Below are positions 16,170 to 18,697 of a stretch of DNA of 64,000 nt, piece after piece. The notes beneath the pieces were generated by a model. That model ran no database searches, was not told the origin of the DNA, and worked only from the letters and a program-made list of their open reading frames with translations. Position 1 is the stretch's first letter, and every line of letters starts with the position of its first letter. The stretch is taken from contig JAQBXR010000013.1 of the NCBI GenBank assembly GCA_027623295.1, positions 1 through 64,000 of the forward strand, given 5' to 3'. A program made the translations under genes and the position numbers. The DNA comes from Planctomycetota bacterium. Lineage in GTDB: Bacteria; Planctomycetota; UBA1135.

Positions 16170-17744
16170 ATGTCGGTACAGCACGAACAAGAAGATTTCC
16201 TCGCCCTGCTTCACGAGCTTGAAGCACGGTGCAAAGTAGACCCCTCTCTCAATCAGGAGTGGGAAGATGCACGCGCTGATTTCCTCAGTAAGAGCGGAGA
16301 AAACGTTCACACCGAGAATCGTTTTCGCGAATGGTTTTTGCTGGAACGTGTCTCGCCAACCTTAGGTTCACCACCAGCCGTTTTATGGGCTCCGGATGCA
16401 CCCGAAGTCGATTCCATTTGGCATCGACTTCTAGACTCCTTTTATGGAATTTTTCAAGGCATCGGTAATGACGACGAGGGTTTCCCGTTGCTGGAAGATC
16501 TTTGGAGCGGGCGTCAAATCCGGTTGATTGGCAGTCGCATGAAGATTGACGATACGGGAGTCATGGTGGGTCGTGTCGCTGTGGGTGGGGAGGAACACCA
16601 TGTACCTTTTCCTGGAACCGCATTCTTGATTGCCCCAGGCCTTGCCGATGCTTTAGCTAAAGACCTATCGAGCATTCGTGCAAAACAACCTCGTTCACGG
16701 CTCTCCCAGCAACAATGCGAAAATCTGCTGTTGCCTTACAGGGTTGCCCAAGAAGAGGAAAATCAGTCCACCGAAGATTTCCAACAACAGCTTCGTGAGT
16801 TATTGGAAGACCAAAACAAGTGGGACATTCCACAAGTCATTGCCTTACTCGAAAAAGAAGGGCCGCAAGAAACCCTGAACCAGATTGCCTTTGATTCCGA
16901 TATTGATTTGGAAGCCCTACGGCATTGCATCCATGGCTTAACCGCGCAGGGGTCGGACAACCCGATCAGCAGCAAGACTCCGGAGGAAGACCAAGACTAC
17001 TTAGATCCGAAAGATGTCCTAGAGGCCTTGGAAGCATTCGATACAGCTATAGAAAATGGCACGGACCTGGTTCAATCCTTTTCCGCTCTAGAAGAAAAAC
17101 TAGGGTTCGAAGCGGGAACCAGTGACCCATATCAAGAAGTTCTAAACGAGGGCACTAGTGCGGAACCAGTAGGCACACAAGAAGCACCCGGTAGCGCCAT
17201 GTGGATGGCAACCTATCTTTGGGAGCAGGAACAAATGGGAGCGCATCCGGGCCGAGAATCCCTGGAGGAGATCACCCATTTCCTTGAGTTCTTGCGCAAC
17301 ATATTCGGCCGCAACCTGGAAGCCGATGAAGTGCATCAACACCAAATTCTGGCCTATTTTTGTCAGGCAGAAAGCTCGGAAATTTTGACCGAACAACTTA
17401 GCCACCTAGAACCATTCCTCGCATGGCTGATAGAAGAACAAGGCGCCCTGATTCAAATGGATCAACCATCTCGAGAACTTATCCATCGGGTGGTTTCTGT
17501 GAACCAACACTGGTCTGGATCTGATTCCATCACTGGAAGCATGGCCATGGTGCAAGAGACGGACCCTTTACAGGTAGGCACCGATAGTGGAGATGCAGCC
17601 ATCGTGATGGGTTGGCCGGAAGGGTTTGATTTCCAACCTGGAATTGGTGATGCCCTGCGTGGCCAGTGGCGGCACGGCAAGTTTCAGATTGGAGCTTGGT
17701 TCCCGAAGGCCTTGATGCCAGCGGCAATCCCGACGCCGAGCTAG
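16170..17744 (+). CDS. large acidic hypothetical protein
   Basis: 524-aa continuous ORF, Glu/Asp/Gln rich, ATG preceded by gaagg; no recognisable domain. Confidence 0.75.
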   Translation: MSVQHEQEDFLALLHELEARCKVDPSLNQEWEDARADFLSKSGENVHTENRFREWFLLERVSPTLGSPPAVLWAPDAPEVDSIWHRLLDSFYGIFQGIGNDDEGFPLLEDLWSGRQIRLIGSRMKIDDTGVMVGRVAVGGEEHHVPFPGTAFLIAPGLADALAKDLSSIRAKQPRSRLSQQQCENLLLPYRVAQEEENQSTEDFQQQLRELLEDQNKWDIPQVIALLEKEGPQETLNQIAFDSDIDLEALRHCIHGLTAQGSDNPISSKTPEEDQDYLDPKDVLEALEAFDTAIENGTDLVQSFSALEEKLGFEAGTSDPYQEVLNEGTSAEPVGTQEAPGSAMWMATYLWEQEQMGAHPGRESLEEITHFLEFLRNIFGRNLEADEVHQHQILAYFCQAESSEILTEQLSHLEPFLAWLIEEQGALIQMDQPSRELIHRVVSVNQHWSGSDSITGSMAMVQETDPLQVGTDSGDAAIVMGWPEGFDFQPGIGDALRGQWRHGKFQIGAWFPKALMPAAIPTPS

Positions 17745-17809
17745 TAGGGCTAAAGATTCAGGAAAGACACGTTCCCTTGGCTTCTGTTTCGCCCTCAACG
17801 TAACGTCCG

Positions 17810-17823
17810 ATAATATATATTAT
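17810..17823. repeat. 14-bp perfect AT-only palindrome ATAATATATATTAT
   Basis: Direct reading; reverse complement identical. Confidence 0.9.
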
Positions 17824-17897
17824 GTTGCGATAATCCTATGGCGGGGAGGCTGTATGACCTTGAAATCAAGCTTTTTGACCCCTCTTGGGGATACTCC

Positions 17898-17930
17898 TGT
17901 GGATAACTGTGTGGATAACCCTGGGATAAA
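17898..17930 (-). promoter_or_regulatory. DnaA box cluster: two perfect boxes plus one core-only match
   Basis: TGTGGATAA at 17898-17906 and 17910-17918 (reverse complement TTATCCACA); core GGATAA at 17924-17929; spacing 12 and 11 nt. Confidence 0.7.
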
Positions 17931-17957
17931 CCGGCTACCGAGTTCTCACAACGCCTT

Positions 17958-18557
17958 CTAGGTGCGGCCCAAGAATAAAACCTTGGCCTCGCCCATCGCG
18001 TTGTATTCCACGCAACTCACTGACCCTGTAGGAATAACCAGATCATCCCAGGCCGGCAAATCCAAATGCATGGCGTCCGCCAAAACAGCTCTGATTGGAA
18101 ACATATGCGATACCAGAGCAACCGCGCCATCGCCGGAATGCTCCTGAACGATGTCAGTGAGACACGCCAAAACCCTAGTTCGCAAGTCACCTAAAGATTC
18201 GCCCTCATGGGCACGCCAATTCCAAGGATCCAGGCGATGCGATTCCCGGTCTGCTGGATATTGGGCATCTACCTCATTTGGGGTCTTACCAATCCAGCGT
18301 CCGCGGGCGATTTCCTTGAGGCCCTCGAGGCTTCTGATTTCCATGTCCATGCGGCCAGCCCTCACCTGTTCGGCCCCAAATTGAGCTCGGCTCAAGGGAC
18401 TTGCGTAAAGTGCCTGAAGAGGAATGGCTTGCAGTTGTACCGCTGCATTTTTAGCCTCTATACGGCCCTGCGGACTCAAATCCACCTCGGTGCCGCCATA
18501 AAAGGACCCATGCCGAGCTGGGCTGACCGCCCCATGTCGAATCAAAAAAAGACGCAT
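17958..18557 (-). CDS. histidine phosphatase (phosphoglycerate mutase-like) family protein
   Basis: MRLFLIRHGAVS (RHG motif), YASPLSRAQFGAE, VALVSHMFPIRA; start at internal Met 18557. Confidence 0.88.
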   Translation of the reverse strand: MRLFLIRHGAVSPARHGSFYGGTEVDLSPQGRIEAKNAAVQLQAIPLQALYASPLSRAQFGAEQVRAGRMDMEIRSLEGLKEIARGRWIGKTPNEVDAQYPADRESHRLDPWNWRAHEGESLGDLRTRVLACLTDIVQEHSGDGAVALVSHMFPIRAVLADAMHLDLPAWDDLVIPTGSVSCVEYNAMGEAKVLFLGRT

Positions 18558-18697
18558 TGCTCTTAAATATACTCTCCAATCCGAGGAAATCAACCAAAAG
18601 TGTTCCTGGAAAGGAACCATATGGCTTTTTCAGCCGGGTTTCAGGTTGGTACAATCTTTGCAATAGTCCTTTGCCTCTAAACCCGAGGAAACTAATC

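What the first reader, a model, noticed from the sequence alone, without database searches (positions are those of the whole stretch)
17745..17957. Perfect DnaA-box doublet beside an AT-rich palindrome in an intergenic gap
Seen: TGTGGATAA (=TTATCCACA) occurs at 17898-17906 and 17910-17918 in the same orientation, with a third core GGATAA at 17924-17929 (helical-phase spacing 12/11 nt). About 75 nt upstream is ATAATATATATTAT within an AT-rich stretch. Established: clustered DnaA boxes plus an AT-rich unwinding element is the layout of bacterial oriC, and also of DnaA titration or DnaA-regulated sites. Against oriC: upstream genes are all + strand and the nearest downstream genes are mostly - strand, i.e. 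converging on the site.
Basis: partly seen in the sequence, partly recalled or inferred. Interest (0 to 1): 0.7.

Follow-up and report, generated by a model that had tools for sequence, protein, structure and literature searches.

The report
Chromosome dimer-resolution site with DnaA boxes
The spot is not a replication start site but the chromosome-separation site (dif) in the terminus region, and in one planctomycete family it carries an unusual, conserved row of predicted binding sites for the replication-starting protein DnaA, hinting at a link between starting replication and finishing it.

Summary
The DnaA-box doublet is real: four head-to-tail boxes at 12/12/11 nt, the only tandem TGTGGA pair in this genome. 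The oriC reading is wrong. The AT-rich palindrome is the core of a Xer dif site (17803-17830), present about once per genome and found in many planctomycete and related lineages. The genome has exactly two tyrosine recombinases (XerC-like, XerD-like) and an FtsK gamma domain. The origin lies at dnaA-dnaN, the GC-skew minimum; this locus is on the terminus side. What is unusual is the array. In 14 genomes of 8 genera of the same family, a 3-4 unit DnaA-box array sits at 12-nt spacing on the XerD side of dif, always in the same orientation. The spacer is not conserved and the downstream gene varies. A matrix trained only on oriC boxes recognises the units. Dif-to-array distances (76-139 bp) cluster at one helical phase. 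No dif-plus-array was found in 380 sampled genomes of the phylum outside the family. Most likely DnaA forms an oligomer there that acts in cis with XerCD/FtsK at dif; the main rival is a DnaA sink that happens to sit at the terminus. DnaA binding and function are inferred, not shown.

The parts
17803..17830 (+). dif site, 28 bp: ACGTCCGATAA (XerC-type arm, 17803-17813), TATATA (central, 17814-17819), TTATGTTGCGA (XerD-type arm, 17820-17830). The 'AT-rich palindrome' 17810-17823 is its core.
   Evidence: near-perfectly conserved core, about one per genome, in unrelated gene contexts across lineages; arm assignment by analogy with E. coli dif (own knowledge).
17886..17897 (+). Array unit 1 (weak DnaA box, TGGGGATACTCC)
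   Evidence: in register with units 2-4; in relatives this unit is usually a full TGTGGA box.
17898..17909 (+). Array unit 2, perfect DnaA box TGTGGATAA (17898-17906) plus spacer
17910..17921 (+). Array unit 3, perfect DnaA box TGTGGATAA (17910-17918) plus spacer
17922..17931 (+). Array unit 4 (weak box TGGGATAAAC; core GGATAA 17924-17929)
   Evidence: a G-rich fourth unit (often GGG-A-AA) follows the three TGTGGA units in most relatives.
17831..17885 (.). Spacer between dif and array; sequence not conserved, length helically phased among relatives
16170..17744 (+). Upstream neighbour, 524-aa protein of unknown family, usually on the XerC side of dif in this family
   Evidence: no Pfam or NCBIfam hit.
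17958..18620 (-). Downstream neighbour, histidine phosphatase (PF00300)

Best explanation
This is the chromosomal dif site, acted on by XerC/XerD under FtsK control, in the replication terminus region of a planctomycete. It carries an accessory array of four head-to-tail DnaA boxes on its XerD side. Shown by sequence: the dif site, the conserved array, its family-wide attachment to dif, its likeness to the family's own oriC boxes, and its helical phasing to dif. Inferred: DnaA binds the array as a cooperative oligomer, and this complex acts in cis on the XerCD-dif complex (or on FtsK, which contacts XerD), so that dimer resolution is tied to DnaA or replication state, much as ArgR/PepA or ArcA/PepA govern cer and psi on plasmids.
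For: dif: core GATAATATATATTATGTTG conserved, one place in nearly every genome of the order that has it, reversed control essentially zero; same core in 55 genome stretches, mostly planctomycetes, Hydrogenedentota and chlamydiae. Exactly two tyrosine recombinases, best hits XerC and XerD; FtsK gamma domain present. Terminus: the two contigs that meet in dnaA have skew of opposite sign; in G011 the skew minimum lies about 530 nt past dnaA; C29, G003 and G011 turn from positive to negative skew on the dif side. Array: in 14 genomes of 8 genera, conserved columns in the dif-to-array region are limited to dif and the array; an oriC-trained matrix gives positive 4-unit sums (+18 to +45) against negative upstream and shuffled controls; the tandem pair occurs only at dif in 8 of the 14 genomes, this one included. 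Anchored to dif, not to the downstream gene, which is a histidine phosphatase, maoC, a HEAT gene or none of these. Phasing: distances 76, 77, 87, 97, 99, 108, 118, 120, 131 and 139 (degenerate array) bp; R=0.87 at 10.5 bp over 11 lineages, Monte Carlo p=3e-5; control distance dif to upstream stop codon R=0.34.
Against: No binding or recombination data. Array absent beside dif in three genera of the family (G012, G014/G022, G018) and outside the family, so it is dispensable. The phasing was noticed before it was tested; with a free choice of period between 6 and 16 the p-value on unique distances is only 0.01. Lineage counts rest partly on weakly supported forks. In G011 dif is about 260 kb from the skew maximum. 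No published DnaA-Xer interaction was found.
Confidence: 0.5

Rival explanations
1. The array is a DnaA titration or DnaA-ATP-lowering locus (like datA or the B. subtilis box clusters) that merely sits next to dif; being copied last, it would lower free DnaA at the end of replication.
For: Same box vocabulary as oriC, head-to-tail layout, intergenic, no consistent target gene. Such loci outside oriC exist in E. coli and B. subtilis (PMC13220808).
Against: Does not predict constant side and orientation relative to dif or helical phasing to it. Shared synteny could explain side and orientation but not phasing.
Confidence: 0.27
2. The array is a regulatory or translation-start element of a downstream maoC-like gene.
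For: In G009, G021, G011, G017 and G019 a MaoC-type reading frame runs in frame through the array, with the GTG of the third box a plausible start; maoC also follows the array in G010.
Against: Array kept in G000-G006 and G016 where no maoC follows; in G010 the array is read in another frame; a dif-adjacent maoC-like frame in another family (L053) has no array.
Confidence: 0.08
3. The 12-nt repeats are bound by some protein other than DnaA.
For: Binding was not tested; spacing is 12 nt here but about 11 nt in the tandem boxes next to dnaA.
Against: Units score like true oriC boxes with a matrix built only from oriC; DnaA carries the standard C-terminal HTH domain.
Confidence: 0.1
4. This is oriC or a second replication origin.
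For: DnaA boxes near AT-rich DNA.
Against: The AT-rich element is dif; the skew minimum is at dnaA-dnaN; the inverted boxes of the family's oriC are missing; genes converge.
Confidence: 0.02

Closest known systems
Chromosomal dif/XerCD/FtsK (E. coli dif)
   Same: 28-bp layout, palindromic arms around 6 bp, TTATGTT right arm, terminus side, two Xer recombinases, FtsK gamma.
   Different: E. coli-type dif needs no accessory DNA (own knowledge); here a conserved DnaA-box array begins roughly 55-115 bp beyond the XerD arm.
Plasmid Xer sites cer (ColE1) and psi (pSC101)
   Same: Xer core with an adjacent accessory stretch for host DNA-binding proteins (PMC5357621).
   Different: Chromosomal; accessory sites are DnaA boxes rather than ArgR, ArcA or PepA sites; distances vary in helical steps.
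datA, DARS and B. subtilis DnaA-box clusters
   Same: DnaA boxes outside oriC (PMC13220808).
   Different: None is known to me to be part of, or phased to, dif; no partner site such as an IHF site was identified here.
Head-to-tail boxes next to dnaA in this family's oriC
   Same: Tandem same-strand boxes, a strong one with weaker G-rich units after it.
   Different: About 11-nt steps there against 12-nt here; oriC also has inverted boxes and lies at the skew minimum.

Membership tests
Chromosomal dif site | 28-bp two-arm palindrome with 6-bp centre matching known dif | tested here: met
   comparison with E. coli dif from own knowledge.
Chromosomal dif site | One copy per chromosome | tested here: met
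   one match in G000 and in nearly all matching genomes.
Chromosomal dif site | Located in the terminus region, near the GC-skew shift | tested here: met
   offset of 8 kb in G000 and 27 kb in G003, about 260 kb in G011. Whole-genome skew could not be drawn (34 contigs).
Chromosomal dif site | XerC, XerD and FtsK gamma encoded | tested here: met
   (Xer scores somewhat below NCBIfam equivalog cut-offs).
Chromosomal dif site | Recombination by XerCD | not testable with these tools
   Needs an assay.
DnaA-box cluster | Boxes match the organism's DnaA consensus | tested here: met
DnaA-box cluster | Bound by DnaA | not testable with these tools
   Needs footprinting or ChIP.
oriC | At cumulative GC-skew minimum | tested here: not met
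   minimum is at dnaA-dnaN.
oriC | DnaA boxes beside an AT-rich unwinding element | tested here: not met
   The AT-rich element is the dif core.
Xer site with accessory sequences (cer/psi type) | Conserved protein-binding stretch at constrained geometry to the Xer core | tested here: inconclusive
   Conservation and phased geometry seen; protein binding not shown.
Xer site with accessory sequences (cer/psi type) | Recombination depends on the accessory protein | not testable with these tools
   Needs an assay.

The most novel reading that the evidence does not exclude
DnaA is an accessory factor of chromosome dimer resolution in this planctomycete family: a DnaA oligomer bound in helical phase next to dif controls XerCD/FtsK recombination, coupling the end of the chromosome cycle to the initiator.
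Probability: 0.35. Interest if true: 0.8.

Novelty: new variant of a known kind. Interest (0 to 1): 0.6.

Why it matters
dif is thought to work with XerCD and FtsK alone, and DnaA is known as an initiator, regulator and transcription factor. A conserved, helically phased DnaA array attached to dif would be the first sign known to me that the initiator acts at the terminus on chromosome separation, and it makes the question of crosstalk between initiation and segregation directly testable. It also supplies a dif sequence for Planctomycetota, where the large 2011 survey failed to predict one (PMC3025954).

Tried and rejected
oriC: rejected on skew, dif identity and oriC at dnaA-dnaN. Promoter of a neighbour gene: the gap lies between 3' ends in the window. 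Protein-coding origin of the 12-nt repeat (V-E-N-x in frame with maoC): rejected because the array persists without a maoC gene in G000-G006 and G016 and is in another frame in G010. FtsK-orienting motifs (E. coli GGGNAGGG): no polarity switch at dif in G000 or G011; a bias at the origin side in G011. Out-of-sample phasing test: further family genomes gave no dif next to the 524-aa gene, and the phylum-wide dif-plus-array pattern found only family members already seen. Presence of the array is not clustered on a DnaA tree: consistent with an old trait lost several times, but the tree is weak.

Full report
Observation. TGTGGATAA lies at 17898-17906 and 17910-17918, the core GGATAA again at 17924-17929, and ATAATATATATTAT at 17810-17823. 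A weaker unit at 17886-17894 makes it a four-unit, same-strand array at 12/12/11 nt. The assembly (2.447 Mb, 34 contigs, 88% complete) holds 11 TTATCCACA and only this one tandem TGTGGA pair. The gap lies between the 3' ends of a 524-aa gene of unknown family and a histidine phosphatase.

The palindrome is dif. Orthologous gaps in related genomes are unalignable except for two blocks: GTCYGATAATATATATTATGTTG and the box array. The first block has the two-arm layout of E. coli dif with the same TTATGTT right arm (own knowledge). In the order it occurs essentially once per genome, with the reversed control at zero or nearly so. It recurs in different gene contexts in 55 stretches of GTDB genomes, mainly Planctomycetota, Hydrogenedentota, Brocadiaceae and chlamydiae. 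The genome encodes exactly two tyrosine recombinases, best matched by XerC and XerD models although below their equivalog cut-offs, and an FtsK with gamma domain. Kono et al. 2011 could not predict dif for Planctomycetes (PMC3025954).

Where origin and terminus lie. dnaA is split between the ends of contigs C11 and C5, followed by dnaN. Skew is mostly negative along C11 and mostly positive along C5 read onward from dnaA, so the minimum is at dnaA. In relative G011 the minimum falls at C1:290,901, about 530 nt beyond the end of the dnaA match. Around dif, skew goes from positive or flat to negative in G000 (local maximum at 9.4 kb) and G003 (maximum 27 kb away); in G011 the maximum is about 260 kb away in a 5.7-Mb genome. 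dif is therefore on the terminus side, with an offset, as the survey found generally.

The array. Fourteen genomes in eight genera of the family (G000-G006, G009, G010, G011, G016, G017, G019, G021) carry the array on the XerD side of dif in the same orientation, and G013 has a degenerate version with the middle unit lost. G012, G014/G022 and G018 lack it. Thirty-seven dif loci of two other families of the order, the non-family loci among 55 dif loci, and 380 sampled genomes of the phylum outside the family show no dif-plus-array. A ten-position matrix trained only on boxes of the dnaA-dnaN region scores the units like true boxes; four-unit sums are +18 to +45 in the 13 array genomes tested, while upstream and shuffled controls are below zero; the best period is 12 in 12 of the 13 and 11 in G004 (G010 was added later). 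The origin region of the family also has tandem same-strand boxes, at about 11 nt, beside dnaA.

Attachment to dif. The gene after the array is a histidine phosphatase (G000, G001, G003-G006), maoC (G009, G010, G011, G017, G019, G021), a HEAT-repeat gene (G002) or a short non-maoC stretch (G016). The array stays with dif whatever follows. It is not a protein repeat: in several genomes no gene on that strand covers it, and in G010 the frame differs.

Helical phasing. Distances from the dif core to unit 1 are 76, 77, 87, 87, 97 (x4), 99, 108, 108, 118, 120 and 131 bp, and 139 in the degenerate case. At 10.5 bp per turn they share one phase: R=0.88 for 14 genomes, 0.87 for 11 lineage representatives (Monte Carlo p=3e-5), 0.84 for unique distances (p=5e-4). 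If the period may float from 10 to 11 the p is 0.0014, and from 6 to 16 it is 0.01 with the best period 10.7. The control distance from dif to the upstream stop codon gives R=0.34. The pattern was seen before it was tested, so this is suggestive rather than final.

Reading. The best account is a dif site with an accessory DnaA array. What is shown is sequence, conservation, uniqueness and geometry. What is inferred is DnaA binding, oligomer formation and an effect on XerCD/FtsK. cer and psi show that Xer sites can be governed by neighbouring DNA-binding proteins (PMC5357621). A DnaA sink that happens to neighbour dif is the main rival. No paper in the held library was found that links a DnaA-box array to dif; the library is incomplete.

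Noticed in passing
   Followed up: partly
L155 (G009) and L251 (G021): A second tandem TGTGGAGAACCCTGTGGAGA pair beside another conserved, sulfatase-like gene in one genus of the family.
   Followed up: partly
L247 (G010) and L248 (G012): The same 19-mer TGTGGAAAACCTGTGGAAA lies 12-19 kb upstream of dnaA near a molybdopterin-biosynthesis-like gene in two genera.
   Followed up: partly
L279:9443-9465: One viral contig carries an exact copy of the planctomycete-type dif core; it could be an element that uses host Xer.
   Followed up: no
G000:C11:139512 and G000:C5:156704: The assembly is broken inside dnaA; the two contig ends overlap within the gene with small differences, so the split looks like an assembly break.
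   Followed up: partly
L094-L096, L141, L017: A MaoC-type reading frame runs in frame through the array in five genomes, so the third DnaA box may supply its GTG start codon.
   Followed up: partly
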